DNA of 20,015 nucleotides from IMG/VR virus record IMGVR_UViG_3300009605_000212, positions 1-20,015 of that record, one strand, 5' to 3'. This stretch comes from a virus. Below, in pieces: positions 115-19,767 of the stretch. The notes under the pieces were generated by a model that was not told the origin of the DNA, did not search any database, and was given only the letters and a program-made list of their open reading frames with translations. How positions within the stretch are numbered: the stretch's first letter is position 1; every line of letters begins with the position of its first letter. The position numbers and the translations under genes are program-made.

Positions 115-303
115 ATGCTAACAGAAAAAATTGTTGATATATTAGATCAGGCGATGGATGATATGTGGCGATTAGCCGTTGAAGAAATTGAGGATTACCG
201 AGAACGAGCAGAGTTCCTCAAGGAGGTTGAGATCATAAAATCCGTTTGCAGGAACTTCAAAGATTTGAGGGATGGGTCCAATGGCTTACCCGACATCGAA
301 TAA
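115..303 (+). CDS. Small acidic helical protein upstream of portal
   Basis: This is a 62-residue protein that I do not recognise. It starts at ATG 115, a few bases after a weak SD-like AGGTGG. The composition is strongly acidic and helix-forming (DILDQAMDDMWRLAVEEIED, then a second charged helix around EFLKEVEI), with a single cysteine and no membrane segment. It sits between the upstream partial gene and the portal and overlaps the portal start by 23 bases, as expected for translational coupling in a packaging operon. Many phages have short unannotated proteins here. A packaging accessory role is possible but not shown. Confidence 0.6.
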   Translation: MLTEKIVDILDQAMDDMWRLAVEEIEDYRERAEFLKEVEIIKSVCRNFKDLRDGSNGLPDIE

Positions 304-2308
304 AGATCGAGCCTCGTGGTGGCAACGGCACATAGAGCAATCTACGAAGCAACTAGACCCATTCTTCAAGGTCGGTCGTAGAATACTGAGCATGTTTGAA
401 AACGAGGCTTATACGCAGCGAGAGACAGTCCTACAGGCATCTCAGCACTCTATTGACGGTACCGAGAGGGTGAAGCCGAGTCTCACGTATGCCTGGATAG
501 AGCAGAGTATCGCAAATATGCTATCCCGCAAGCCTCGGTTCAGGGTTCAGGCAAAGCGACGCGACTCAGTGGCTGGGGAAGTCCCTGTGGGCAGAGTCAT
601 AAATTATTGGTATGACGACACGGACCAGATGCATCAGGACAGGAAATGTCTGCTGGATCAGATGGTCTACGGGTTCGGCATTAAGAAGATGGGCTGGACC
701 GCAGACATTAAAATGAGTGGCGAGGACCGGGAGTTTTTGTCTGACTCGGCAGAACTCCAATTTGATGATCCTGACGAGGAAAATCTCTGGCTGGCTACGG
801 GCACTCCTACCAAAATATTGCAAGACCATGACCACATAGGTCACAACGAGAAGCATCGACCCTTGATGGATGACAGGACCATTGCGGACGATATCAAGGA
901 GATTATCCAGGAACACATTGATGAGCATGTTGAAAGAGCAAACCGTGCGGAGGCTACTACGCATATCGATGTGCAGGAGGAATCTCCGTTCGGTCTGAGA
1001 TGGTGGCCCGAGGATTTCCGTATTGATCCTTTGGCGAGGGATGGCCTCAAGGACGCACGATGGATTGCTTTCCGATCAGTGAAACCCATCGAGGAGGTCA
1101 GGGATAATCCAAATTATAATCGACAGGCAGTCAACGCCTTACAACCTCAGAGGATGGAGGATGCGCCTGACATAGATTCCACGTTCCAGGAGGAGGACGG
1201 GTTCGGGATGGTGACGGTGTGGGAGATATGGGCGCGGAACTTCAAACTGAGCGGCAGACGCAGACGTAACGTGATGGCGGTCATAGCGGAGCAAGGTGCA
1301 AAGGGATCAGAAAGTCCGGTGTTATTGAGGCATGAGGACGAATGGCCTTACGATACCTTGAAGGGTTATCCCTCGGTATTGTTGCCACCTGCGCTTCAGG
1401 GTGTCAAGACATGGCTTCAGAAGCCGACACTCAGCCTCGCTGGATTCGATAATATCCAGTTACTTGTCAACGAGCTGCTCGATTCGTTCCTCGCAACTAT
1501 CCGTAAGCAAAAAAATATCATCTTCTACGATTCCAACGTCTTCCAGAACGATGAGGTAGACATAGCAGTTGCTTCTCCTGGCGATGCGGCTATAGGTGTC
1601 CCCGGCTTGTCCCAGGCGGGTCTGGGATCTGTTGTGCCGTTACCGTTCCTCCAGATCCCAGGGGATAAGGGACAATTTTTGAGTCTGATCACGAGTCTGG
1701 GAGATAGAGCGGCGGGAACACCTCAACCCATTGACTCAGGATCAGATACAGCTACGGAGTCAGCGATCAAGGAGAGGCGTACCACTGCCCGAGAGGGTCT
1801 GAGGATAGATGCCTTTGAGAAATTCCAGGTTGATACAGCCACCATTATCTGGAGACTGCACACGCAATTCCAGCCAGAGATGGAGGTAGAAATAGATGAG
1901 AGAGCCAGAGAATTCTCCACGGTCGATGAACGAATTGTCAAGGGGGCATTCCGGTTTAGCATAGATGTTTCCTCGGCAGTCACAGCTCAAGCACTGGAGC
2001 GGAAACAGTGGCTGGATCTCTTGAACTTGTTGTCGGGTATGGTGGAGATCTCGGTGCAACAGGGTATGCCGCCACCGAACCTGCCGAAGATTGCAGAGCA
2101 GTTACTCGTCCGAGGCTACGATGTCATGAACCCCGAGGAGCTGTGGCCAGCTATCGAGCAGAGCATAGGTGCGGAGAATCCACTGGCACAGGCACTACAG
2201 CAACAGATCGGCCCTAACGGTCAACAGACTGGGCCGATTAACAGGCAGCAGTTCGCACAACCTGCGGGTAACGAGGCCGCACAGATCAGGGAGTCGGTGC
2301 AATTATGA
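281..2308 (+). CDS. Portal protein
   Basis: A 675-residue portal protein would form the dodecameric ring at the capsid vertex through which DNA is packaged and ejected. Support comes from its size, its place just before the scaffold and capsid genes, a long helical N-terminal region (SWWQRHIEQSTKQLDPFFKV), a tryptophan- and proline-rich middle, and a C-terminal helix carrying TESAIKERRTTAREGLRID. That helix resembles the crown-proximal helices of podovirus-type portals. I chose ATG 281 over ATG 272 because the SD-like GAGGG at 267-271 is nine bases from 281 and only touches 272. The C-terminus is rich in glutamine and asparagine (QALQQQIGPNGQQTG), which fits a flexible tail. The stop overlaps the next start as ATGA. 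Confidence 0.85.
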   Translation: MAYPTSNKDRASWWQRHIEQSTKQLDPFFKVGRRILSMFENEAYTQRETVLQASQHSIDGTERVKPSLTYAWIEQSIANMLSRKPRFRVQAKRRDSVAGEVPVGRVINYWYDDTDQMHQDRKCLLDQMVYGFGIKKMGWTADIKMSGEDREFLSDSAELQFDDPDEENLWLATGTPTKILQDHDHIGHNEKHRPLMDDRTIADDIKEIIQEHIDEHVERANRAEATTHIDVQEESPFGLRWWPEDFRIDPLARDGLKDARWIAFRSVKPIEEVRDNPNYNRQAVNALQPQRMEDAPDIDSTFQEEDGFGMVTVWEIWARNFKLSGRRRRNVMAVIAEQGAKGSESPVLLRHEDEWPYDTLKGYPSVLLPPALQGVKTWLQKPTLSLAGFDNIQLLVNELLDSFLATIRKQKNIIFYDSNVFQNDEVDIAVASPGDAAIGVPGLSQAGLGSVVPLPFLQIPGDKGQFLSLITSLGDRAAGTPQPIDSGSDTATESAIKERRTTAREGLRIDAFEKFQVDTATIIWRLHTQFQPEMEVEIDERAREFSTVDERIVKGAFRFSIDVSSAVTAQALERKQWLDLLNLLSGMVEISVQQGMPPPNLPKIAEQLLVRGYDVMNPEELWPAIEQSIGAENPLAQALQQQIGPNGQQTGPINRQQFAQPAGNEAAQIRESVQL

Positions 2309-3747
2309 TGATGCTCCCACCCAAGCCATCGGGTGTTCTGGATGCTCTCGGGATCAGGGAAGCGGCAAAACAGGTGCCTATATTTCCTCTGCCCTTTGAA
2401 GAACCTATCAGCAAGGGAGTGGCACATGGTATCGAGTCACTCACTGGATATGCTCCGAACGTCACGGGTGCTGATTTGTTGGATATGATTCTGCCTCAAG
2501 ATCCAGGGGAGGCGATGTTCGATATTGTTGGTCCTCTCGCAGTGCAGCAAAGAGTGCTAAAGAAAGCGGCGGGAGGAGTATCTTCGATACTCAGGGGCAA
2601 GGTTCCGAAAGATGTTCCGATCTCAAAAGATCCGACAACTTTCTACCACGGCACAAGAACACCAGAGCCGTTTGAGTATAAAGAGGGCTTTGAGGTTGGT
2701 GGTCCCAGGCAGCAGTTTGATGAGTTTGCAGAACAGACTTCAGATTTTATTGATGTGGGATCTGGTCCTGATCCGAGCAGTTATTTGGGTGTGTCCTTTG
2801 CCTTCACTCCAGACATCGCCAGCAAATTTGCAACAGGAACATCAAAGGCTGGAAATATTGCGATGCGCGGATTCGGAGAAAGTGCTGGCAGAGTCATTCC
2901 GGCGAAACTTGGGGTGGTAAACCCAAAGAAGTTTGCAGATGATTTTGAACTCCAGGACTTCCTTTTTAACCAAAAGGCAGAAGGCGTAGGTTTTGAGGAT
3001 GGCATCGATATCATCGCGAACTTTGATGAGGAAGCAGCAGAAAAACTTTTCAATCAGTACCAAAAAGGTGGGGCATCCGTAAGGAATGAGATCAACAGAG
3101 ATATTGTAACTGAGTTGGGCAGACTTGACGATCCATCTCTTGCAGACGACTTTGCAAGAGATCTTGCAGAGTCTGCGAAAAGAACACTCAAGGACAAAGG
3201 CCATGACGCAGTGATTCACAAGAACGTAATAGAAGGTGGAGATGCCATTATTGTGTTCGACCCTGAAAAGGTCGAGTTTTTAGATGAGTCGATCAAGGCG
3301 ATGCAACTCTCTGATGATGAACTCTTGCAGCAGTTGGGGAAGATGGATTTCAAGGAATACGGAAAATTCGGGGACGAACTTGCCAAACTCAAGGCTGACC
3401 CTGAGATAGTGGCTGGAGAGATGGTGGATGGGCTTCGCGTGACAGACGACATTCCCAACCTATCATCAATAAGTGCAAGCGACATGGAAGAAATAGGTGG
3501 TGGGGTACGAAAAATGTCACTTTCTGGATGGCATGCGAACCCAGAAAAAATGTTCTATGCCGCTGATGACATTGAAAGAACGCACGCATTGGCAAAGCGA
3601 ATTCAGGAAAGCGGGAAAATAGACCCATTGATTATTGCCTTCAGAGAAGATGGACCATATGTCCTGGAGGGATTACATAGACTTGGTGCATTGTACTTAC
3701 TTGGGAAAAAGTCCTTTCCGGCTTTGGTGGTGAAAGAGATATTTTAA
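2305..3747 (+). CDS. ADP-ribosyltransferase-like / ParB-like fusion protein
   Basis: This 480-residue protein has three recognisable parts. Residues 1-110 form a hydrophobic and proline-rich leader. Residues about 112-325 look like an ADP-ribosyltransferase-type fold as found in phage polyvalent proteins. They contain TFYHGTRTP at 112-120, an aromatic and alanine-rich strand-helix FAFTPDIASKFA at 165-176, and GHDAVIHKN followed by DAIIVFDPEKVEF near 299-325, which is the usual final strand pair. Residues about 424-478 match a ParB/sulfiredoxin-type domain: KIDPLIIAFREDGPYVLEGL, then HRLGALYLLGKKSFPALVV. The gene overlaps the portal stop by four bases and sits where many phages carry a MuF protein, so packaging into the virion and ejection into the host is plausible. 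The third catalytic position of the transferase is uncertain, so activity is unproven. It appears more A-rich at synonymous sites than the portal. Confidence 0.7.
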   Translation: MMMLPPKPSGVLDALGIREAAKQVPIFPLPFEEPISKGVAHGIESLTGYAPNVTGADLLDMILPQDPGEAMFDIVGPLAVQQRVLKKAAGGVSSILRGKVPKDVPISKDPTTFYHGTRTPEPFEYKEGFEVGGPRQQFDEFAEQTSDFIDVGSGPDPSSYLGVSFAFTPDIASKFATGTSKAGNIAMRGFGESAGRVIPAKLGVVNPKKFADDFELQDFLFNQKAEGVGFEDGIDIIANFDEEAAEKLFNQYQKGGASVRNEINRDIVTELGRLDDPSLADDFARDLAESAKRTLKDKGHDAVIHKNVIEGGDAIIVFDPEKVEFLDESIKAMQLSDDELLQQLGKMDFKEYGKFGDELAKLKADPEIVAGEMVDGLRVTDDIPNLSSISASDMEEIGGGVRKMSLSGWHANPEKMFYAADDIERTHALAKRIQESGKIDPLIIAFREDGPYVLEGLHRLGALYLLGKKSFPALVVKEIF

Positions 3748-3763
3748 TAGAGTTGGGGTTATA

Positions 3764-4171
3764 ATGCCCGCTTACGACTACAAGTGCAAGGATTGTGGGT
3801 ATACGGAGACGTATTACCAGATCCCCTATGATGCCCGATTTAAACTGCAAATGTGCAGCGAGTGTGGATACTGGGCTGAGTACCAGTTCCCAATCGATGC
3901 GTTAAACGGTTTCCAGCCGTTCGCTCCTTACTACGATGAGTGCCTGGATGGAGACATCACCTCACGTAGGGACCGCAAGGAATTTCTCAAGGCTGAGGGT
4001 CTGGAGGAGGCCGGAGACAAGCGAGGTGGCAGCAGGTTCTTTGACAAGCACGCACCTCACCATATCAAACCTATGCCACCAACGGGAGTCAGTGTGTGGC
4101 AATCCAGGGAGCAGCAGAAACGAGAAGTCGAAAAGGCCAATAAGATGAGAGATGTTGAGGGACTAGGTTAA
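3764..4171 (+). CDS. FmdB-like zinc-ribbon protein
   Basis: This 135-residue protein has an N-terminal zinc ribbon. Two CxxC knuckles (C8/C11 in YKCKDCG and C31/C34 in MCSECG) are separated by 19 residues, the arrangement of the FmdB/CxxC-CxxC-SSSS family (MPxYxYxCxxCG opening). The rest is polar and charged (SRRDRKEFLKAEGLEEAGDK) and ends in a helical basic segment. It lies between the ART/ParB gene and the scaffold candidate, 16 bases after the former and 13 before the latter. Zinc ribbons of this type bind nucleic acid or protein partners, and in phages they are often encoded near the packaging and head genes. Its function here is not established. Confidence 0.75.
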   Translation: MPAYDYKCKDCGYTETYYQIPYDARFKLQMCSECGYWAEYQFPIDALNGFQPFAPYYDECLDGDITSRRDRKEFLKAEGLEEAGDKRGGSRFFDKHAPHHIKPMPPTGVSVWQSREQQKREVEKANKMRDVEGLG

Positions 4172-4184
4172 CCGGGAGAGACTA

Positions 4185-5120
4185 ATGGCTGAGGAAAAAT
4201 TAAATAACGACAATCCTGTCGCCGAAATCCATGATGCTCAAGCGGCGGGATTGATGGCAGATCTTCAAAACACACTCGGTAGAGTGACGGACGGACAGGC
4301 CAACAGCACGGACACGACAACCGATGGGATCGTGGCACCAGCTGGCAGTGAGGACTCGGCAACCAATGGGACCGAGACACCACACACGGATCTCCAGTCC
4401 ATAAGAGCAGCACTTCCCAGTAACCAAGCAGAGGCGGTTGCGAAGATTTTTGCTGACAATACTCGCCTCCTTAATCAAGTCAGGGAGTTAGAGGTTCGCG
4501 GAGAGGAGCAGTTGAAGAACACTGTCGATACCGCCGTAAATACAGCACTGAGGGAACAGGCAGTTGCGGATTCGGGATACGAACCCGATGATCCTTTGGC
4601 AGCCGTAACTTCGGAGCAGAAGCATCTATTTCTCAGGATCGCTGACGAACTTGGTTTCGTTAAGTCTGGAGACCTCAAAGCACAAGAGGCTGTAGACTTT
4701 GTAGCGAAGGAGAATGTCAAGGCGGTAGAGGTTTTCGGTGAGTCTCTGGGCCAGCTCGATTCCGTGGGTGGGATCATCTTGTCCAAAGACGCCAAGTCGA
4801 TGATGACACCGATTTACAATCGACTGTCGATTGACGGCAAGCCACCTCCAAAACTTACCTATAACGATCTGATGAAGATTGGAACGTACGATGCCTTGAA
4901 AAAACAGGTGTCGGACTTAAAGGCGAGTCTGGGTGAAACAGATGAGACGTTGAGAATCAAAAACCTGCAACGTGCTCAGACGGAGGGTCCAGGTGCGTCA
5001 GTGGCAACGTCTGTCAGTCTGAGGGGAGAGAAAGGCACTCCCGCAGATAAGAGGGACAACGTCATGGCGAGGGCATTCCAGTTGGCGAAGCAGCAGCAGT
5101 CTCGAAATCAGAGAGGATAA
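4185..5120 (+). CDS. Probable scaffolding protein
   Basis: This 311-residue protein directly precedes the capsid gene and has the look of a podovirus scaffold. It has an acidic N-terminus, then a low-complexity Ser/Thr/Gly/Asn/Asp linker at about residues 36-68. A helical, coiled-coil-prone stretch follows at about 80-125 (AKIFADNTRLLNQVRELEV), then more helices, and finally a basic, glutamine-rich end (QLAKQQQSRNQRG) that could bind coat protein. There is no protease motif and no cysteine. The ATG lies six bases after CCGGGAGAG. Role is assigned from position and composition, since scaffolds have little sequence conservation. Confidence 0.7.
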   Translation: MAEEKLNNDNPVAEIHDAQAAGLMADLQNTLGRVTDGQANSTDTTTDGIVAPAGSEDSATNGTETPHTDLQSIRAALPSNQAEAVAKIFADNTRLLNQVRELEVRGEEQLKNTVDTAVNTALREQAVADSGYEPDDPLAAVTSEQKHLFLRIADELGFVKSGDLKAQEAVDFVAKENVKAVEVFGESLGQLDSVGGIILSKDAKSMMTPIYNRLSIDGKPPPKLTYNDLMKIGTYDALKKQVSDLKASLGETDETLRIKNLQRAQTEGPGASVATSVSLRGEKGTPADKRDNVMARAFQLAKQQQSRNQRG

Positions 5121-5124
5121 CTAA

Positions 5125-6108
5125 GTGGCAAACGAAACGTCATTGACCCTGTCGTATGGGCCACTATTGACAAGCACTCTCTTCAACTACCTGGAATCCG
5201 GTTCGTTTGCGGATAATATCGCAGACGCAACTCCGACACTGGATTATTATCTGTCGGGGGATCGGATCAAACTCACAACGGGTGGGGAGAGGCTTTCGGT
5301 GGCAATCATGCACGAGTTGAACAGCACCGCTCAGTCCTATACGGGATACGGCGTGCTGGACACCTCGGAGAGCACGGGTTTTACCCGTGCGTTCTTCACG
5401 AACAAACTCTATGCCGTAAGCATCGCCATCAACGGCGATGAGTTAACGGCAAACATGGGTGAGGCTCAACTGTTTGATCTGTTGAACGGCAAAACGTCTC
5501 AGGCAGAGATCTCTCTTGCCAACCTGCTGTCAACGGATCTGTTTTCGACTAGCGCAGATGGTGCTTCCGGTATCACGGGACTCGGTCTCCAGATCGACTC
5601 CACTGGGACGTACGGCACGATTGACCGCTCCTCGAATACGGCGTGGGCTTCCAACGAAGCGTCAGTAGGTGCGGCGGCAACGAATTTGCTGCCGAATCTC
5701 AGGACTCAGTATAACAACGCGACTCAGGGCAAGGGCGGGATGTCCTCGAAGCCTGACGCCATTGTATTCACGCAGACCAACCATGAAGCGTTCGAGGCGT
5801 TGATGTTCCCGTTCTTGCAATACACGGGTTCCTCAACGGCTGACAACTCTGTAAACGCAGGATTGTCTGACTTGCGTTACAAGGCTGCTCGAACATGGTG
5901 GGATGCAGATGCGACTTCGGGTACGGCTTTCGGTCTGAACTCTGCCCATTCCTGGCTTGCTGTTCACCGCAACCGGAATATGGCGATGGCTGAGGGCGGA
6001 TTCCAGAAGCCTGTCAACCAGGATGCGCTCGTCACCCAGGTGCTGTTCAAGGGCAACCTTGTCTCGAATGCACCGAAAAAGTTGTTCAAACTCACAGGTA
6101 TCACCTAA
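5125..6108 (+). CDS. Major capsid protein
   Basis: A 327-residue protein that I read as the HK97-fold coat subunit. It begins MANETSLTLSYGPLLTSTLF, continues with a beta-hairpin (E-loop-like) region rich in Gly/Thr, has a long helix-strand core, and ends LVTQVLFKGNLVSNAPKK-LFKLTGIT, the closing strand pattern seen in many environmental podovirus coat proteins. It starts at GTG 5125 after GAGAGG eight bases upstream; no ATG fits this N-terminus. It is positioned immediately after the scaffold candidate and before small decoration-like genes. There is no cysteine and no N-terminal delta domain, so the scaffold is separate. The exact coat subfamily cannot be named from reading alone. Confidence 0.8.
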   Translation: MANETSLTLSYGPLLTSTLFNYLESGSFADNIADATPTLDYYLSGDRIKLTTGGERLSVAIMHELNSTAQSYTGYGVLDTSESTGFTRAFFTNKLYAVSIAINGDELTANMGEAQLFDLLNGKTSQAEISLANLLSTDLFSTSADGASGITGLGLQIDSTGTYGTIDRSSNTAWASNEASVGAAATNLLPNLRTQYNNATQGKGGMSSKPDAIVFTQTNHEAFEALMFPFLQYTGSSTADNSVNAGLSDLRYKAARTWWDADATSGTAFGLNSAHSWLAVHRNRNMAMAEGGFQKPVNQDALVTQVLFKGNLVSNAPKKLFKLTGIT

Positions 6109-6904: not shown

Positions 6905-7588
6905 ATGAACGTGATGGTGGGGGGGTGCCCGAGGTCGGGCACCTCCTGCATTACCGATGCGTTGAGCCGATGCGGATTAGACCTCGGTCAGAGACTGAGT
7001 AAGATCCGCAGAAAATCAACACATCAAAGACTCGCCACAGAAGATCCAGTTTTTGTCGCAGCTAATACGCAGGTGTTTGAAACTGCTGACTGCGACAGAA
7101 GGCGTGCAGAATCGTTCTTTGACAGCAAAATACAGCGGGAAGGCGTTGACAGGGTTTTTGATGACAAGACAGATCCGTGGGTACTGAAAGATCCTATCGG
7201 AGTCTCGCTGCTCTACCCTCTCTGGCGAAAAGTGTTGAACGAGAGAGGAATAAAGTTTCGCGCAGTCTTTGTTCTCAGACATCCATCATCGGTGATTTCT
7301 TCGGGGTCATCATTCTTCTCTATCAGGCCGGATCGCATGGCAAAGATCTGGTGGCAGACCTATCAATCCCTACTGACCTGGACTACTCTGTATCCTGACG
7401 ATTTCAGGTGGGTTCTGTTCCCTCAGTTGCTGGGGATGGAGACGGCGACACTGGATTCTCCAGAACCAATAAAATGGAGGGAGTCTTATAATCATAATTT
7501 TGTAAGGACACCGATAAGGGATTTGCCGGGGAAGTTCCATCAACTGACAAGGCTTTATGAATACCTGGAGAACAAGTGCGTAACGTAA
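6905..7588 (+). CDS. Sulfotransferase, first of tandem pair
   Basis: A 227-residue protein of the PAPS-dependent sulfotransferase superfamily, which moves sulfate from 3'-phosphoadenosine-5'-phosphosulfate to a hydroxyl or amine. The 5'-phosphosulfate loop is CPRSGTS at residues 8-14 right at the N-terminus, after one short strand. The 3'-phosphate-binding segment is FVLRHPSSVISS, with R125 and S133 separated by eight positions as in characterised enzymes. PWVLKDP at 91-97 lies where the catalytic region is expected. It is short for the family, resembling the compact bacterial and phage forms. It has no signal peptide or membrane segment, so it is likely cytoplasmic, with a glycan or small molecule as possible acceptor. 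It starts at ATG 6905 after CCGGGAGA and overlaps the next gene by 13 bases. A seven-G run and a strong hairpin fall in its first codons. Confidence 0.8.
   Translation: MNVMVGGCPRSGTSCITDALSRCGLDLGQRLSKIRRKSTHQRLATEDPVFVAANTQVFETADCDRRRAESFFDSKIQREGVDRVFDDKTDPWVLKDPIGVSLLYPLWRKVLNERGIKFRAVFVLRHPSSVISSGSSFFSIRPDRMAKIWWQTYQSLLTWTTLYPDDFRWVLFPQLLGMETATLDSPEPIKWRESYNHNFVRTPIRDLPGKFHQLTRLYEYLENKCVT
6921..6946 (+). promoter_or_regulatory. Strong GC hairpin at the start of the sulfotransferase gene
   Basis: Bases 6924-6931 (GGTGCCCG) pair perfectly with 6936-6943 (CGGGCACC) around the tetraloop AGGT. The stem extends with a G-U and two G-C pairs to 6921 and 6946, giving 11 pairs. It begins 16 bases after the A of the ATG, so it abuts the footprint of an initiating ribosome. 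The same bases encode the conserved phosphosulfate loop. No U-tract follows, so it is not an intrinsic terminator. It overlaps the end of the G7 run at 6919-6925. Effect on expression is inferred. Confidence 0.5.
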
Positions 7589-8274
7589 TTGTGACAGGTG
7601 TTCCGAGGAGCGGCACGTCATGGTTGGCATCAGTATTTGTTAATCATGGATTTGATCCCGGCAGACGAGCCTTCGAGGAGTCTAAAAAATATCATGCGAA
7701 GGTAGAGCCGCCCAGGTGGGAAGATCCGTGGGTGTTGAAAGAAAATAATCAGTCGTTCTCATTCTCTGAGGGCCATCCCATGATGCCTCCTGATCACGTC
7801 TGGTCGACTCCATCACCTTCGTTTGTTGAAGAAGTCTTGTCAGACAAAAAAGAGCCGTGGGTCATCAAAGACCCTGGATTTTGTTTTACCCTGCCGATGT
7901 GGATGGAGCTGGATCTTGACTTTGTAGTCTGTGCCACACTCAGGCATCCGTGGTCGTGCGTTAAGTCGCTGAACGAGTCGGTTTCGTTCCCCGAGTCGAG
8001 ATGCCCCAAGATCTGGTGGCGGTACATGATTAATCTTGTCGGATTATCTTGCAGCATTCCAGTAAACTGGGTAAGTTTCCCAGAACAGAACGGCATAAAG
8101 TCTGCTGTTGGATCAACTGGTTGCACGTACAAAAAGACAGATTCATTCCACGATATATTTATTCACAATCAACCCGAGGATGTGCCAGACGAGTATCGGC
8201 ACCTCTTAAACCTTTACACCGATATTTTAACACCGCTGGAAAACCGGGAGATATTTGAACATGGAACTAAGTGA
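7576..8274 (+). CDS. Sulfotransferase, second of tandem pair
   Basis: A 232-residue paralogue of the preceding gene. It has the phosphosulfate loop GVPRSGTSWLAS at 8-19, a central PWVIKDP at 94-100 (PWVLKDP in the first copy) and the 3'-phosphate segment ATLRHPWSCVKS, with R123 and S131 eight apart. Both copies also share KIWW about 20 residues later (147-150 and 145-148). It starts at GTG 7576, five bases after a GGAG, overlapping the upstream gene; the start falls directly on the first beta strand, so an earlier start is unlikely. The region between the loop and PWVIKDP differs greatly from the first copy, with an insert rich in Trp, Pro and Glu (VEPPRWEDPWVLKENN), which suggests a different acceptor. 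No export signal is seen. It overlaps the next gene by 14 bases. Confidence 0.8.
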   Translation: MRNVIVTGVPRSGTSWLASVFVNHGFDPGRRAFEESKKYHAKVEPPRWEDPWVLKENNQSFSFSEGHPMMPPDHVWSTPSPSFVEEVLSDKKEPWVIKDPGFCFTLPMWMELDLDFVVCATLRHPWSCVKSLNESVSFPESRCPKIWWRYMINLVGLSCSIPVNWVSFPEQNGIKSAVGSTGCTYKKTDSFHDIFIHNQPEDVPDEYRHLLNLYTDILTPLENREIFEHGTK

Positions 8275-9433
8275 CAAGGCAAAGGCGGCGAACGTCCTTG
8301 TGGCAACTCCAAACTATACAAACGAGTTGTCATCAGAGGTCCACGTCAACCACATCGAACTTGCGGTCAACTGGACCAAGTGGGGATTGAGTTTTAACTG
8401 TGTTTTGATTGGCAGGACGTTTGTTCATTTCGCCAGGACACAGATGGTGGAACTCGTTTTAAAGCCAGCAGACAACGACAAACCCCTCGGGCATCCAGAA
8501 TACAAACCGTTTTATTCGCATGTTTTGTGGTTGGATGATGACGCAGTAATCGAGCCGGATCTGCTTCTGAGGTATATCGACTTTGACAAGGATGTGGTGA
8601 TCTCACCGTACCCGATGAGGAGGCCCGGTTACGAGATTGGGGTCTTGACTTCCGTTGCACATAAATGTGATTGTGGGTGGTACGGCTATATATTGTGGTC
8701 CTACGAAGACAAGAAGGTCATTACAATCGAAACCCTGGAGGAGCTGAGGGGAGAGATTGGAGACGCACCGGACGAAGAGGCTGGGCCGGAAGGTTGCCCA
8801 GCGAACGAAGATGAGATCGTCTGCCCCAAATGCGGGAGCCGGGAAATGTGGAGAGATTTCCACAACCACAGGGCATATCGAAACCTCTCTACGTTCCACA
8901 ATCTTGACCGGGGTTTGATCGAGGTGGACGGAGGCGGCACACACGCAATGCTTGTCAAGACCGAATCGTTTTATGATCGAAGGGGTCAGGTTGGTGGTCC
9001 TGATGCGATGCCTACCGAGGTCACGAATATCGTCAAGTTTATCAAGGATAACTTGAACGAAGAGGATCAGCAGCGTTATGACCACTACCTGGGTGACATC
9101 CCCGATGAGACTCATAATTTTGTCGAGGAGTATCAGTCAGGGAAGCCGTACTTCTTGATGCCGAAGAGGGGAACAGAGGATATGTATTGGTGTTACCGTG
9201 CAAAACGGAAGGGCATCAAAACCTTCTGCGACTCAGACTCCTTCGCTGGGCATGTCGGATTTGCTCCAGTTATTACCAGAGGTTTCAGGGATGCTATTGA
9301 GCGAAGCAAATACGGACTCGGAAACGGCGAAAGAGAAGTGAAGATCCAGAAACTCCAGACAAACGAGGACGATAAGTTTTTACCGATCAGGAAGCCGGGG
9401 GTGCATGTAGACAAGGCATCGAATATTATATGA
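8261..9433 (+). CDS. GT-A type glycosyltransferase with inserted zinc ribbon
   Basis: A 390-residue protein with a GT-A nucleotide-sugar transferase layout. The first strand is NVLVATPNYT; HVLWLDDDAVIEP at about 87-99 holds the DxD metal site; and a later acceptor-side strand is GGGTHAMLVKTESF at about 225-238. W-CYRAKRKGIKTF with DSDSFAGHVGF follows near 320-345. Between the DxD half and the acceptor half is a zinc ribbon made of CDCGWYG (C136, C138) and CPKCG (C188, C191). This insertion is unusual for the family. I chose ATG 8261 because CCGGGAG at 8244-8250 is properly spaced to it; a TTG at 8255 is too close. The likely role is to add a sugar to a lipid-linked or protein-linked glycan that the neighbouring sulfotransferases and methyltransferase then modify. 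Donor and acceptor are unknown. There is no membrane segment. Confidence 0.75.
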   Translation: MELSDKAKAANVLVATPNYTNELSSEVHVNHIELAVNWTKWGLSFNCVLIGRTFVHFARTQMVELVLKPADNDKPLGHPEYKPFYSHVLWLDDDAVIEPDLLLRYIDFDKDVVISPYPMRRPGYEIGVLTSVAHKCDCGWYGYILWSYEDKKVITIETLEELRGEIGDAPDEEAGPEGCPANEDEIVCPKCGSREMWRDFHNHRAYRNLSTFHNLDRGLIEVDGGGTHAMLVKTESFYDRRGQVGGPDAMPTEVTNIVKFIKDNLNEEDQQRYDHYLGDIPDETHNFVEEYQSGKPYFLMPKRGTEDMYWCYRAKRKGIKTFCDSDSFAGHVGFAPVITRGFRDAIERSKYGLGNGEREVKIQKLQTNEDDKFLPIRKPGVHVDKASNII

Positions 9434-9720
9434 TCCCAAACGTGCCACCTGATGGGGATATCAACCTTAACGCTTTGGGGTTTGACGTTGACGGGAATCC
9501 AAGAGTTGATGTCCTGCGGTGTAAGACTTGCAGGAAGGGACTCGATACCTCTGAAACCAATATTCTGTTTTGCCCTTACTGTCTCGGGAACGAATGGACA
9601 AGCAAGACGGGAATCTTAACATTTCCTGAGCAGGTAAGGCTCTACCGAATGACAGGCTTTTGGTTTACAACGCCAGCGAACGGGAAATGGAATAAGTTTT
9701 TCGGGAGACTGTTACCGTGA
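9430..9720 (+). CDS. Small zinc-ribbon protein
   Basis: A 96-residue protein whose ATG overlaps the glycosyltransferase stop (ATGA) and whose stop overlaps the methyltransferase start. Its centre is a zinc ribbon: VLRCKTCRKGL and ILFCPYCLGNEW, two CxxC pairs about 15 residues apart. The tail LYRMTGFWFTTPANGKWNKF is aromatic and could be a contact surface. It is not a copy of the FmdB-like protein at 3764. Its position suggests that it acts with the glycosyltransferase, which carries its own ribbon, as a subunit or adaptor. That is inference; no enzymatic motif is visible. Confidence 0.7.
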   Translation: MIPNVPPDGDINLNALGFDVDGNPRVDVLRCKTCRKGLDTSETNILFCPYCLGNEWTSKTGILTFPEQVRLYRMTGFWFTTPANGKWNKFFGRLLP

Positions 9721-10406
9721 AGGAACTCCAGTTTTGCGGGGTAGTCGATGAGATTTTGCCAAACCTGGACAGCCCGAATCGCACAGATGGAATTATAAAT
9801 TCAGACGATGATTTTGTTGTGAAGTTTGTTACGGGCAGAGGAAGCAGGGGAAAAAAATATATAGTAGATGTGGCGTTCCCCGAGAAGGTGAAAATTCATT
9901 GCGACATGAACGGAGTGGATGAATCCTGTGCGGAGTTTCTCACGGGGCTTGTCGGGATGATACAGCCCAAGATTGCACTGGAAACCGGAACGCACAGAGG
10001 AAGAAGCACAAAGGCTATTGCGGAGGCTCTTGTCATAAACGGTCACGGGATGTTGTGGACTGTAGACCGTAACGATTATGATGTGCTGAGTCGTGCATTG
10101 ACTCCATCAGAGTTTGACAAGGTGACACAGGTGATCGGTGAAACCCCACAGGCGTTTGAGGAAGATCCGCTCAAGAGTCTTGAGGGTATAGAGTTTGCAT
10201 TTCTTGACGGTGGACATGATGCATTTAACGTAATGGCTGAACTTGAATATGTTGACGCCCACAGGGCAGAAGAATGCATAGTTGCAATAGATAACACCAG
10301 GGATTCCATGTGGCCCGAGCAGTCGGAGTTTTTGAGGAGTTATGATAGGTACCCTATTGTGTCGCTTCCATCAATGTGCGGCACAGACATCATTCAGATG
10401 AGGTAA
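9717..10406 (+). CDS. Class I SAM-dependent methyltransferase
   Basis: A 229-residue protein with a Rossmann methyltransferase core in the second half. Motif I is KIALETGTHRGRSTKAIAEA (about 85-104), followed by an acidic adenosine-binding residue in LWTVDRNDYD (D117) and IEFAFLDGGHDAFNV (about 158-171). The last of these is the D-G-G-H pattern of the Methyltransf_24 type found in sugar and glycan methyltransferases. AIDNTRD at 190-196 provides a second acidic site. About 70 N-terminal residues precede the core and are not recognised. It starts at GTG 9717, eight bases after TCGGGAGA, overlapping the upstream stop as GTGA. As the last gene of the coupled cassette it would methylate the same glycan; DNA-methyltransferase motifs are absent. 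Substrate is unproven. Confidence 0.75.
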   Translation: MKELQFCGVVDEILPNLDSPNRTDGIINSDDDFVVKFVTGRGSRGKKYIVDVAFPEKVKIHCDMNGVDESCAEFLTGLVGMIQPKIALETGTHRGRSTKAIAEALVINGHGMLWTVDRNDYDVLSRALTPSEFDKVTQVIGETPQAFEEDPLKSLEGIEFAFLDGGHDAFNVMAELEYVDAHRAEECIVAIDNTRDSMWPEQSEFLRSYDRYPIVSLPSMCGTDIIQMR

Positions 10407-10798: not shown

Positions 10799-11083
10799 AT
10801 GAGCAATGCCGCAGTATCAGTCACGACAGATGCCACCTCTCTGGTTGCCGAGAACTTCGAGAGGATTGGTCTGACTATAGACAATCAGGGATCTGTGACG
10901 GTTTTCATCGGTGATGTCTCAACAGTCACAGCAGCAACAGGCATCACTCTGGCTGCGGGAGCAAAATTGACCTATAATTTCGATGGGGGTTCTCCTCAAT
11001 ATTTTTTTCAAGGACAACTCTGGGGAATTGTTAGCAGCGGGACAGCAGATGTCAGAATTATGGAGCACGCCAGAACAAGATGA
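10799..11083 (+). CDS. Small beta-sandwich virion protein
   Basis: A 94-residue protein with the order seen in many small phage neck or decoration proteins: an N-terminal strand (AAVSVTTDATSLVAENFERI), GLTIDNQGSVTVFIGDVSTV, then GITLAAGAKLTYNF, an aromatic strand QYFFQGQLWGIVSSGTADV, and a charged end RIMEHARTR. It has no cysteine, signal peptide or membrane helix. ATG 10799 lacks an SD and follows two hairpins, so translation may be coupled or controlled by structure. The stop overlaps an unused ATG at 11080. I am fairly sure that it is structural, less sure which part of the virion. Confidence 0.65.
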   Translation: MSNAAVSVTTDATSLVAENFERIGLTIDNQGSVTVFIGDVSTVTAATGITLAAGAKLTYNFDGGSPQYFFQGQLWGIVSSGTADVRIMEHARTR

Positions 11084-14311: not shown

Positions 14312-16591
14312 ATGGCTGTTACATTTGCATTCCAAGGTACAAAGCCATCGGCAGGTGCTGAGATTCTTGCCGCACCGATTACTGACTCACTCGATCATAT
14401 CATAAACACCCTGAATGCGGCGAATCTTTCCTCGGGGAACGTCAACACAACAGGCACGGACTTGATCGTGGTGGCAGATGTTGCACAGACAATTACGAAA
14501 CTCAAATCCTGGGAAACCACGGATGCGGCGGCGGGAGGAGTCAGAGAGGTTGCACAGTTTGGCATTGATCCCGTGAGCGGAACTCCTGCGGCGAATGATG
14601 GTGGCCGCTTAGTGTTCTATGCCGATGATGCTGGCGGAACGGAATCGGATATCGCGTACCTCGATTATGTGATGACTACCGCCACGGCGGGGTCAGAGGT
14701 TGGGCGATTAGATTTTTATGTAGCCGCATCAGGTGCTCCAGTGTCACAGCTACAGATCACGGATGGGTCGATCAATCCTACAACCACGGATGACATAAGT
14801 CTCGGGACTTCAGCCCTGAATTTCTCTGATCTGTTCCTTGACCTGGGGGCTGTTGTAAATTTCAATTCCGGCGATGTCACTATTACTCATTCTGCGAATG
14901 TTCTGGCTCTTGATGGAGGTGTTCTGTCTGTTGATACTACAACGGAATCTACAAGCACTACTACGGGATCTATCCACACTGACGGCGGATTGGGAGTGGT
15001 TGGAGATATATATGCCGGGGATGATATTTTCTTTGCTAGTGGGGGAGTGCTGAATTTTGCCGCTGGAGATGTCACTCTCACTCACAGCTCAGAGACTCTG
15101 ACTGTTGCCGGGGGAACATTTGCAACTGCTGCCCTGAGCGCAACTACCATTACGGGGTCTAGTGTCTTATCTATTGATGACACAACGGAATCCACAAGCA
15201 CCACCACGGGATCTATACACACTGATGGCGGTTTAGGGGTGGTTGGCGACATATATGCTGGAGATGATATTTTCTTCGCGAGCGGAGCGGTGCTCAATTT
15301 TGCCGCCGGAGATGTCACCGTCACGCACGCTTCAAACAAACTCACGCTTGCGGGTGGGGGTCTGGACGTGGGCGTGGACGGGACAGGCCACGATGTCAAA
15401 CTATTCGGAGACACCTCTGGAAAATATCTTTTGTGGGATCAGTCGGAAGACCTTGCAGTCTTGCAAGGCTCATTGGTTGTCGGTCACACTGCGCTGGATG
15501 GCGTAGGCAGTTCAGAGCCGCATATACAGATTCATAACACCGGGAATCCCGCCTTCGGAGCGTTTAGGTGGGCAGACTCGGCATATGGCCCGATTAACTA
15601 TATGGGCAAATCTCGAAATGGCACCATAGGATCTCACGCGATTGTTGAGGATGGTGACATTCTCGGGGAGATCAAGTTCCTGGGTGATGATGGGGTTGAC
15701 CTCAACTCGGTAGCTGCGAGTATTGGAGCGGCGGTGGACGGAACCCCCGGGTCAAATGATATGCCGGGGAGGCTGGTCTTCTCCACGACAGCCGATGGCG
15801 CGGTGGCACCTACGGAGCGGATGCGGATCGATACTGTGGGGAGAGTTTTAATTGGACACACTGCGTCCCTCCCTGTTTACGGTACTCAATCCCCGCTTCA
15901 GATACACGGCAGTTCACCTCTGAGTCTCTCCCGATGGGTCGGCAGCGCAGGTGCACCGTATTTGCAGTTCGCCAAATCCAGAGGAACTTCTCCCGGCTCC
16001 TTCACGACAGTTGCAGATGGTGATGAACTCGGAAACATTTCCTTCAGTGCTGCCGATAATACTGATGTGGAGACTACCGCCGCTGTGATACAGGTCAAGT
16101 GCACTGGCACTGTTGGTGGAAACCGAATCCCAGGGCAATTTTCGATATGGGTTTCTGATGCTGCCAATCCCAGCGCACTTCAAGAGCGATTCAAAATCAT
16201 CACCAATGGCGATGCATACACTAACGATGGTACGATCCATAGCCTCTCGGACATATCCTCGAAAAAAGATGTTGCCGATTTCACGGATGGCCTTGCGGTG
16301 CTGACTAGGTTGCAGCCCATCAAGTACAAGTTCAATGGCCGATACGGGATGGGGCCGGATGACGGAGTGGAGAGATTGGGATTTTCCGCACAGGCCGTGC
16401 AAGGGGTTGCACCTTATCTGGTAAGTGAAACTACACAGAATATCGGCCCACCGTTACCTCCAGAACCAGAAGATGACCAAGTTCAGGAAACGGCTAACGT
16501 GTTGGGGATGAGCCAGACTAAACTTATCCCGATTATGGTCAACGCATTCAAGGAGGTCGAGGCGAGACTCGCAGCACTGGAGGCGGCATGA
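14312..16591 (+). CDS. Tail fibre/spike with C-terminal S74 intramolecular chaperone
   Basis: A 759-residue trimeric fibre candidate. It has an N-terminal region that likely attaches to the tail ([18 protein letters not shown]). A repeated beta region holds two close copies at residues 204-268 and 285-349, plus a weaker earlier copy at about 178-203. Two divergent copies of a larger receptor-binding-like module begin at VGHT 390 and IGHT 514. The C-terminal 113 residues form an S74 peptidase/chaperone. The cleavage site is S646-D647 with K651 (SDISSKKDV), matching the SDxxxK motif, followed by [13 protein letters not shown] and a C-terminal coiled coil ([17 protein letters not shown]). After trimer folding the chaperone should cleave itself off. 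It starts at ATG 14312 after AGAGG, ten bases from the nozzle stop, and ends in an ATGA overlap. Confidence 0.8.
14921..15358 (+). repeat. Tandem duplicated fibre module (two 65-codon copies)
   Basis: Copy one spans 14921-15115 and copy two 15164-15358, with a 243-base period. At the protein level both read [20 protein letters not shown] followed by [12 protein letters not shown] and [10 protein letters not shown]. Most base differences are at third codon positions (for example GGATCTATCC versus GGATCTATAC), so the duplication is old enough to drift silently while the protein is held constant. A partial third copy, ending [18 protein letters not shown], lies at about 14843-14920. Confidence 0.8.
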
Positions 16592-18012: not shown

Positions 18013-19767
18013 ATGGCACTCACCATTGATCCAAGCCTCAGAAAAAGTCAGCGGAAAAAGACAGGCAGACTAGCTCTCGGCACGGAAACAGAGGAGGATA
18101 TCGCAGGTAGGCGCAAGACGTTTTTGGGCGATATCGGAGGTCTGGAGGAGAGAGCCACGGAACAGGCTCTCGCACTGGATTTTGATCCCTCCAAAGAGAG
18201 GGCAGCCCGTACGGGATTTGTGGATTTGCAGACTCAACAGGCGCGTGAACGTCTCGGTCGCCAGTTTGGTATCAGTCCCGAGTCGATTCAGTCCGGCAGA
18301 GCCTTAAGGGGTTTCGGGACGTTAGAGGCGCAGAGACTTGGGGAGTTGTCTGGCCTGGAGAGAGAGTTATCTATAAGGGCGGGACAAGAACAGAGAGCGA
18401 ATCTGGCGGCTGTACAGGGTCTCATGGGCCAGAGGGGCCAGCAAAATTTAGCTGCCGCGCAAGGGCAGTTATCGGCTCTTGGACAGAGCGAGGCACAACT
18501 AAATGCTCTGGAGCAGTTGCAGATCCAGCAACAACAACAGGCATTAGCGGAAACACTAGGCACGGGGGAACTAGCTCTCAGACAACAACTCGGAACGGGA
18601 GATCTTGCGCTCAGACAACAACTCGGACTCGGCAGTCTTGCGCTGGAGCAAGAATTAGGCAGGGGTGGCTTGGCTCTTGGGGGTAGGGCACAGACTGAGG
18701 CGGAGATAGCGGGAGCCGCACAGAGGGGCATCGCTGGAAGGGCGCAGTCTGAGGCAGAGATGGCGGGAGCCGCACAGAGGGTTGTTGCTGGGAGGGCGAT
18801 GGCCGAAGCGGCAGCAGCAGGGGCTGCCCAGAGGGGCATTGCTACCAGAGCGATGTCTGAAGCGGAAGCGGCAGGGGCGGCTCAGAGGGGCATTGCTGCG
18901 AAGGCAATGACGGAGGAGGAGGCGGCAGGGGCCGCTCAGAGAGGTATTGCCGGAAGAGCGATGACTCTCCAGGAGGAAACCACCAGACGTCAGTTGGATC
19001 TCGCTCAATCCGAATTATTCGGTGAGGGAGAAACTGAACAGGTCGGTGGGGATGCTGATCTCGAAGCCGCATACCGAGGTGCGTTTCAGTCATCGGTGGG
19101 GGACGCCAACTACGTGCAGGGATTGGATATTGACGGAGACGGCACGATCACATTTCAAGATTTCATTGCGGGGGTACAGGCCGGAAGTCCACTCAGTTTA
19201 GGGAACGGTCAATACAGGGTGCCGACACCGGGCAGGAAGACGCTGGGGCAGCAGCAAATGGAGATTGATGCAGGGAACGCTGCCAAAGCACTCAATATAG
19301 ATGAGACGAGAGTCAAAAATGCTGCGAGCATCGCATTTGCAGGGATTGAGGAACAGGTCAGAGAATTTAACAGTAATTTCCTGGGTGTTATCCAGACTGA
19401 TCCCGATTTCCTGCGAATGCAGGGGACGGGACCGGATGCCCGGAGGAGTCCCCAGGCAAAACTTGCCGCTCGTCAACTCGATCAGATAGACCAAGCGATG
19501 ACCACAGAATTCCCTGAATTTTTGGGCATGGTCGGTTTGACGCCGTACGAGTTTGATCAACTTGACGAACCATCGAAGGTGCAGATCGGGACATTTTTTG
19601 CCTCGATCATATTCGGTCCCTCAATCTCGTTCGGTGGAGGTGCGTCAGGTCCGCGGGGTGGGGGAGGAGGAGGATCAAATTTGCTGCCAAGTATTTTTGG
19701 CATGGTAGGTGAAATCGGCGGTCGTGCTCTTGCGGGCTATATGGGACGCCCACCAGTTCCTGGGTAA
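18013..19767 (+). CDS. Repeat-rich internal virion protein candidate with EF-hand-like loop
   Basis: A 584-residue protein with an Ala/Gln/Leu-rich helical N-terminal half and a compact C-terminal half. In order: a basic start (LRKSQRKKTGRLALG), helices with QQQQ, four copies of an 11-residue LGxGxLALxQx unit (182-225), and six copies of an 18-residue AxAEAEIAGAAQRGIAGR-like unit (226-333). An EF-hand/dockerin-type calcium loop DIDGDGTITFQD follows at 372-383 with D at 1, 3, 5 and 12. Then come a glycine hinge (GPRGGGGGGSNL) and a hydrophobic tail. The helical repeats, size and place after the lysis genes suggest an internal or ejection protein. No enzyme motif is seen. ATG 18013 follows a weak GGAAAG. 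Confidence 0.65.
   Translation: MALTIDPSLRKSQRKKTGRLALGTETEEDIAGRRKTFLGDIGGLEERATEQALALDFDPSKERAARTGFVDLQTQQARERLGRQFGISPESIQSGRALRGFGTLEAQRLGELSGLERELSIRAGQEQRANLAAVQGLMGQRGQQNLAAAQGQLSALGQSEAQLNALEQLQIQQQQQALAETLGTGELALRQQLGTGDLALRQQLGLGSLALEQELGRGGLALGGRAQTEAEIAGAAQRGIAGRAQSEAEMAGAAQRVVAGRAMAEAAAAGAAQRGIATRAMSEAEAAGAAQRGIAAKAMTEEEAAGAAQRGIAGRAMTLQEETTRRQLDLAQSELFGEGETEQVGGDADLEAAYRGAFQSSVGDANYVQGLDIDGDGTITFQDFIAGVQAGSPLSLGNGQYRVPTPGRKTLGQQQMEIDAGNAAKALNIDETRVKNAASIAFAGIEEQVREFNSNFLGVIQTDPDFLRMQGTGPDARRSPQAKLAARQLDQIDQAMTTEFPEFLGMVGLTPYEFDQLDEPSKVQIGTFFASIIFGPSISFGGGASGPRGGGGGGSNLLPSIFGMVGEIGGRALAGYMGRPPVPG
18556..18687 (+). repeat. Four tandem 33-base repeats (LGTGELALRQQ unit)
   Basis: Copies at 18556-18588, 18589-18621, 18622-18654 and 18655-18687 encode LGTGELALRQQ, LGTGDLALRQQ, LGLGSLALEQE and LGRGGLALGGR. 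The exact period of 33 bases keeps frame. The first two copies are nearly the same; later ones have drifted, consistent with unequal duplication from the 5' end. Confidence 0.85.
18688..19011 (+). repeat. Six tandem 54-base repeats (AGAAQRGIAGR unit)
   Basis: Copies begin at 18688, 18742, 18796, 18850, 18904 and 18958. Five contain xEAExAGAAQRxxAxR and the sixth (ending at 19011) is degenerate (MTLQEETTRRQLDLAQS). All are exactly 54 bases, in frame, and abut the 33-base repeats. Residue conservation is far stronger than base conservation. A helical rod or flexible surface is likely. Confidence 0.85.
19126..19161 (+). other. EF-hand / dockerin-like calcium-binding loop
   Basis: These 36 bases encode DIDGDGTITFQD (residues 372-383) with acidic residues at loop positions 1, 3, 5 and 12, glycine at 6 and isoleucine at 8. 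The flanks are YVQGL and FIAGV. This matches single-loop EF-hand or dockerin-type modules. A calcium switch in a virion or ejected protein is inferred, not shown. Confidence 0.6.

What the first reader, a model, noticed from the sequence alone, without database searches (positions are those of the whole stretch)
2305..3747. ADP-ribosyltransferase/ParB-like fusion at the MuF position
The domain order seen is ART-like core then ParB/sulfiredoxin-like domain, directly after the portal and overlapping it. Known: MuF and polyvalent proteins near the portal can carry effector domains that ride in the virion. Inference: a virion-delivered effector that ADP-ribosylates a host target, with the ParB-like part binding or cutting DNA, possibly at DNA entry. 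The combination is uncommon as far as I know.
Basis: partly seen in the sequence, partly recalled or inferred. Interest (0 to 1): 0.7.

Follow-up and report, generated by a model that had tools for sequence, protein, structure and literature searches.

The report
Modular phage ADP-ribosyltransferase-like effector gene
A virus of bacteria carries, next to its DNA-entry gate gene, a swappable gene for a small multi-part protein that probably rides in the particle and chemically tags host molecules; it is a new, divergent member of a known class rather than a new kind of system.

Summary
ORF 2305-3747 (480 aa, 4-bp overlap with the portal stop) encodes a 108-aa N-terminus, a divergent ART-PolyVal-like core (aa ~109-331) and a ParB-like C-terminus (core aa ~396-480). 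Both assignments are below Pfam cut-offs. A profile built from the published ART-PolyVal prototype's relatives scores this core, and a 54%-identical relative, above 1000 shuffles each. AlphaFold2 failed (pLDDT 32-33), so the fold is unconfirmed.

The interpretation needs three corrections. (1) This is not a MuF protein: no MuF domain was found, and the slot between portal and Zn-ribbon gene is variable, holding unrelated genes or nothing in related phages. (2) The ParB part is optional: near-identical phages stop at the end of the ART, and relative L049 has an ART with no ParB but an upstream HExxH metallopeptidase-like module, a classic polyvalent architecture. (3) ART plus ParB is not unprecedented: phage vB_Pun_Y3 carries ART-PolyVal and ddrB-ParB in one protein, both above cut-off.

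Best reading: a small modular polyvalent effector gene expressed late, probably packaged and injected. Virion delivery and catalysis are inferred. The strand-2 aromatic of the ART site is replaced by Ser in both known members, so activity is uncertain.

The parts
272..2308 (+). portal-like protein (678 aa), upstream neighbour; stop codon overlaps the start of the ART gene by 4 nt
   Evidence: Position and size as in Mx8-like phages (portal, small gene, scaffold, MCP); 25% tblastn match to an annotated head-to-tail joining protein; no Pfam hit. Overlap read.
2305..3747 (+). 480-aa modular ART-like / ParB-like protein gene
   Evidence: found in five other contigs; purifying selection
2305..2628 (+). 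N-terminal module, aa 1-108, unknown; not shared with the L049 relative, so swapped there for an N-terminus plus HExxH metallopeptidase-like module
   Evidence: (no alignment)
2629..3297 (+). ART-PolyVal-like core, aa 109-331: FYHGT (H115, nt 2647-2649); GVSFAFTPDIASKFA (S164, nt 2794-2796; F175, nt 2827-2829); EGGDAIIVFD (D313, nt 3241-3243; D319)
3307..3336 (+). junction motif LSDDELLQQL (aa 335-344); the same motif (M[ST]DxEILxEL) occurs three times in the L049 protein between and after its modules
   Evidence: 0 of 20000 shuffles of L049 give even one match
3343..3744 (+). optional C-terminal segment, aa 347-480; absent in L004/L005, where identity ends at 3343 and a 54-aa ORF follows, and absent in L049
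3490..3744 (+). ParB-like core, aa 396-480, with EGLHR motif (H458-R459, nt 3676-3681)
3764..4171 (+). FmdB-like zinc-ribbon protein, fixed right border of the variable slot
   Evidence: homologue in L016, L017, L018, L042, L044, L049 and in ctMlz233
4185..5120 (+). putative scaffold protein
   Evidence: position before the MCP, as in Mx8-like phages; no family hit
5125..6108 (+). major capsid protein
   Evidence: phrog_9953 major head protein E 7e-42; tblastn to Mx8 and other podophage MCPs

Best explanation
The gene encodes a small polyvalent-type effector: an ART-PolyVal/Tox-ART-HYD2-like domain carried as exchangeable cargo in a variable slot between the portal gene and the FmdB-like/scaffold/capsid genes of an Mx8-like podophage. 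Expressed late and translationally coupled to the portal (position shown; coupling inferred), the protein is most likely packaged in the head and ejected with the DNA (inferred), where the ART would transfer ADP-ribose from NAD+ to a host molecule to aid takeover or block defence, as T4 Alt does (inferred). Modules are swapped around the ART core at short 'SDxEhLxxL' junction motifs (shown by comparison): an N-terminal HExxH metallopeptidase-like module in L049, or a C-terminal ParB-like module in the window's lineage. The ParB-like module is an optional second activity, probably nucleotide-binding or nuclease (inferred), not required by the ART protein.
For: ART-like: motif order and profile score above 1000 shuffles for two members 54% identical; ART-PolyVal the only Pfam hit of the core. 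Polyvalent: the L049 protein in the same slot joins an HExxH...ExxAD module to the ART; MPTase+ART is the described polyvalent theme (PMC5512222). Cargo: the slot holds unrelated genes or none in L016, L017/L018, L042, L044 and in Mx8-like phages. Optional ParB; local divergence of the right flank (92-94% against 98-99.6% on the left) suggests recombination at the junction. Delivery precedent: LIMEstone1 ORF173 passes the ART-PolyVal cut-off and is listed as a virion protein; about 44% of phage ARTs lie in packaging-type contexts (PMC9503650).
Against: No fold confirmation. Both domain assignments are below curated thresholds. The strand-2 aromatic typical of the family (Y or F) is Ser in both members, and the helix Tyr is Phe. 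Only one divergent relative was found, so catalytic conservation rests on two lineages. Nothing here shows that the protein is in virions. The ORF173 precedent rests on one peptide.
Confidence: 0.55

Rival explanations
1. The ART-like protein is made late and acts inside the producing cell (like T4 ModA/ModB, or against defence or superinfecting phages) without being packaged.
For: Position only implies late expression; not all phage ARTs are virion proteins (PMC9503650).
Against: Polyvalent architecture with a metallopeptidase-like module in L049 and a head-gene context favour packaging; slot neighbours are structural genes.
Confidence: 0.25
2. A degenerate ART that no longer catalyses transfer but binds NAD+, nucleotides or a partner (a decoy, or a structural head or neck accessory).
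For: Strand-2 aromatic replaced by Ser/Ala and helix Tyr by Phe in both members; sub-threshold Pfam scores.
Against: H115 and D313 plus long islands around the motifs are invariant between members 54% identical, which speaks for a constrained site; Phe also occurs at the helix position in vRNAP ARTs of roseophages (L026, L027).
Confidence: 0.15
3. A MuF-type minor head protein with a toxin tail, required for virion assembly.
For: Gene lies directly after the portal.
Against: No MuF match in Pfam, PHROGs or NCBIfam; phages with the same portal, Zn-ribbon, scaffold and MCP lack any homologue in that slot.
Confidence: 0.04

Closest known systems
ART-PolyVal (PF18760), Tox-ART-HYD2 clade, prototype ART of Roseovarius Plymouth podovirus 1 vRNAP
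   Same: YHG[TS], G-x-x-F/L-T/A...A..[YF]A, NP strand and G[YHF]D[GA] ... VF motifs in the same order; phage late-gene context
   Different: Below the Pfam cut-off; longer inserts before strand 2 and between strand 3 and the G[YHF]D motif; Ser at the strand-2 aromatic position; Phe at the helix Tyr
Pseudoalteromonas phage vB_Pun_Y3 polyvalent protein WPJ21802
   Same: ART-PolyVal and a ParB-superfamily domain in one phage protein
   Different: 3421 aa with methyltransferase and LPD domains; ParB precedes the ART and is of the ddrB type; the window protein is 480 aa with a ParB_N/Spo0J-like domain after the ART
LIMEstone1 ORF173 (solo ART-PolyVal, virion-associated)
   Same: ART-PolyVal domain, product reported in virions
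   Different: Solo domain in an Ackermannvirus, not next to the portal; detection by a single peptide
T4 Alt
   Same: Proposed mode of action: head-packaged ADP-ribosyltransferase injected with DNA
   Different: R-S-E clade ART (PMC5512222), no sequence relation claimed; no modular slot

Membership tests
ART-PolyVal (PF18760) | Score above curated Pfam cut-off | tested here: not met
   13-16 bits against 31.2; L049 relative 12.8 bits
ART-PolyVal (PF18760) | Sequence relation to the prototype family beyond chance | tested here: met
   14.0 bits against a maximum of 6.3 in 1000 shuffles; L049 16.1 against a maximum of 8.2. hhalign aligns only the C-terminal half, probability 58-61%
ART-PolyVal (PF18760) | H in strand 1, Y in strand 2, D in strand 5 (PMC5512222) | tested here: inconclusive
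   H115 and D313/D319 conserved in both lineages; strand-2 position is Ser (or Ala), helix Tyr is Phe. RPP1 itself shows F at the strand-2 position in this alignment
ART-PolyVal (PF18760) | ART fold | tested here: inconclusive
   AlphaFold2 pLDDT 32 and 33, uninformative
Polyvalent proteins | Several effector domains in one polypeptide, often with a zincin-like metallopeptidase, in phage late regions | tested here: met
   Window: ART + ParB-like; L049: HExxH...ExxAD module + ART, same slot. The metallopeptidase assignment is by motif only; no Pfam hit
DdrB-like ParB (PF18763) | Match to the ddrB-ParB profile | tested here: not met
   Not among hits of aa 347-480 at E up to 10
ParB/Spo0J superfamily (ParB_N) | Conserved ParB N-terminal motif region with GxxR-type motif | tested here: met
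   PHROG ParB E 7e-4, 1vz0 E 0.008, EGLHR motif; the Pfam ParB_N score is sub-threshold (14.2 against 26.3)
MuF minor head proteins | MuF domain | tested here: not met
   No match in Pfam, PHROGs or NCBIfam
MuF minor head proteins | Conserved structural gene after the portal | tested here: not met
   Slot variable or empty in relatives

The most novel reading that the evidence does not exclude
A distinct ART subfamily with an H-S-D active site (Ser in place of the strand-2 Tyr), carried in mini-polyvalent proteins of Mx8-like phages whose modules are joined and exchanged at a repeated SDxEhLxxL motif that serves as processing or head-targeting tag.
Probability: 0.15. Interest if true: 0.55.

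Novelty: new member of a known kind. Interest (0 to 1): 0.33.

Why it matters
It extends the polyvalent-effector theme to compact proteins in Mx8-like podophages and captures module gain or loss between otherwise near-identical phages (ParB present or absent at 99% identity). It also marks a portal-proximal cargo slot in this phage group where effector genes can be looked for systematically. The repeated junction motif gives a simple, testable handle on how such proteins are assembled or processed.

Tried and rejected
Structure prediction of the whole protein with six near-identical rows and of the ART core with the L049 relative: pLDDT 32 and 33, discarded; no fold search was run on them. tblastn of the whole protein in 50,697 phage records at E 10 gave only chance-level or ParB-region hits, and of the ART core in plasmids one chance-level hit (E 8). 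Two scans of bacterial and archaeal genomes found no relative. PF18760 and PF18763 searches of the related viral records found nothing. The 11-member ART alignment was too divergent to search viral contigs with. The Cas12a, P450 and PD-Lambda-5 hits were set aside as chance or as ParB-type. MuF membership was considered and rejected. An ancestral ParB was considered; absence from L049 and from L004/L005 makes gain in the window's lineage the simpler reading, though the sample is small.

Full report
What is there. The window is a 20,015-base fragment of a podophage-type virus (G000). Its late genes run portal-like (272-2308), the finding (2305-3747), FmdB-like zinc ribbon (3764-4171), putative scaffold (4185-5120), major capsid protein (5125-6108, phrog_9953 E 7e-42), then tail, fibre and lysis genes. 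The capsid protein is related at 25-29% to those of Mx8-like podophages. The ORF of the finding is intact, overlaps the portal stop by 4 nt, and recurs in five other contigs.

Domains. Pfam gives only sub-threshold ART-PolyVal and ParB_N matches. To test the ART assignment independently, I took the ART of the Roseovarius Plymouth podovirus 1 vRNAP, the prototype named in PMC5512222, collected its relatives from phages and plasmids, and built an 11-member profile. It scores the window ART at 14.0 bits; the best of 1000 shuffled versions reached 6.3. The relative in L049, 54% identical, scores 16.1 against 8.2. The motifs lie in the right order: YHGT, G-V-S-F-A....A..F-A, NP, G-H-D-A, VFD. Profile-profile comparison supports only the C-terminal half (probability 58-61%). 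The ParB-like part rests on PHROG E 7e-4, 1vz0 Spo0J E 0.008 and the EGLHR motif; it does not match the ddrB-ParB profile typical of polyvalent proteins. Two AlphaFold2 jobs failed, so the folds are not confirmed.

Active site. H115 and D313 are conserved in the divergent L049 protein, as are the stretches DVGSGPDPSS-LGVSFAFTPDIA and EGGDAIIVFD. The strand-2 position that is Y or F in the other family members is Ser in a gapless register, and the helix Tyr is Phe, as also in two roseophage vRNAP ARTs. E321 is not conserved. Whether the enzyme is active cannot be told from sequence.

The slot. Phages with homologous portal, zinc-ribbon, scaffold and capsid genes have other things between portal and zinc ribbon: a 79-aa ORF (L016), a 96-aa plus 510-aa pair (L017, L018; the same pair at the end of L043), a 96-aa plus 269-aa pair (L042), a 61-aa ORF (L044). 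The 96-aa protein is 51% identical to a protein the window encodes elsewhere, at 10799-11083. Mx8 and ctMlz233 have a single small gene between portal and scaffold. The ART gene is therefore cargo, not a conserved MuF-type head protein; no MuF domain was found.

Modularity. L004 and L005 are 98.7-98.9% identical to the window up to position 3343, then the ART protein ends (..QQLGKR) and 180 bp with a 54-aa ORF of no known family replace the ParB segment. Identity just right of the slot is 92-94% against 98-99.6% to its left, which suggests recombination there. In L049 the same slot holds a 630-aa protein whose C-terminal third is the ART; upstream lies a module with HEVAH and a downstream ExxAD, a metallopeptidase-like pattern assigned by motif only. 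Its N-terminus does not align with that of the window protein. A motif M[ST]DxEILxEL occurs three times in the L049 protein, before and between the modules and at the end, and once in the window protein as LSDDELLQQL, just where the window and L004 part (0 of 20000 shuffles give even one match).

Function. MPTase plus ART in a phage late gene is the polyvalent-protein theme (PMC5512222), and many phage ARTs lie in packaging-type contexts (PMC9503650). LIMEstone1 ORF173, a solo ART-PolyVal protein above the Pfam cut-off, was found in virions, by one peptide. By analogy the window protein is most likely packaged, injected and acts on a host molecule; none of this is shown here. The ParB part may add a nucleotide-binding or nuclease activity but is dispensable. 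ART and ParB in one phage protein is known from vB_Pun_Y3.

Verdict. It is a divergent new member of the polyvalent/ART-PolyVal kind, with an informative case of module exchange.

Noticed in passing
window 6905-10406: Between capsid and tail genes lies a cluster of sugar/cap-modification-type genes: two sulfotransferase-like proteins (sub-threshold Sulfotransfer_3), a 392-aa glycosyltransferase-like protein (my reading of the sequence; no profile hit for this) and a methyltransferase (Methyltransf_24 E 3.5e-10). L017 carries a relative of the 392-aa protein after its capsid genes.
   Followed up: no
window 10799-11083; L017 2717-3007; L042 3397-3687: A 94-96 aa protein sits near the tail genes in the window but in the portal-proximal slot in relatives (51% identity), so cassettes move between sites.
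   Followed up: partly
window 3307-3336; L049 polyvalent protein at 3662-5554: Repeated SDxEhLxxL motif at module junctions; not found in the other plus-strand ORFs of 90 or more codons scanned in the window and related loci, nor at junctions in other polyvalent proteins checked.
   Followed up: partly
window 18013-19767: 584-aa protein with a repeat-rich middle (AEAAGAAQRGIA-type units) and one EF-hand-like loop (PF00036 E 0.0016, sub-threshold).
   Followed up: no
window 14312-16591: Tail-fibre-type protein ending in an S74 intramolecular chaperone domain (PF13884 E 7e-8), with repeated internal blocks.
   Followed up: no
L036 (Vibrio phage 1.182.O) 4056-5756: A 566-aa protein with an above-threshold ART-PolyVal domain (E 3e-17) after a long hydrophobic, Gly/Ala-rich N-terminus, next to structural genes; annotated only as 'coil containing protein'.
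   Followed up: no
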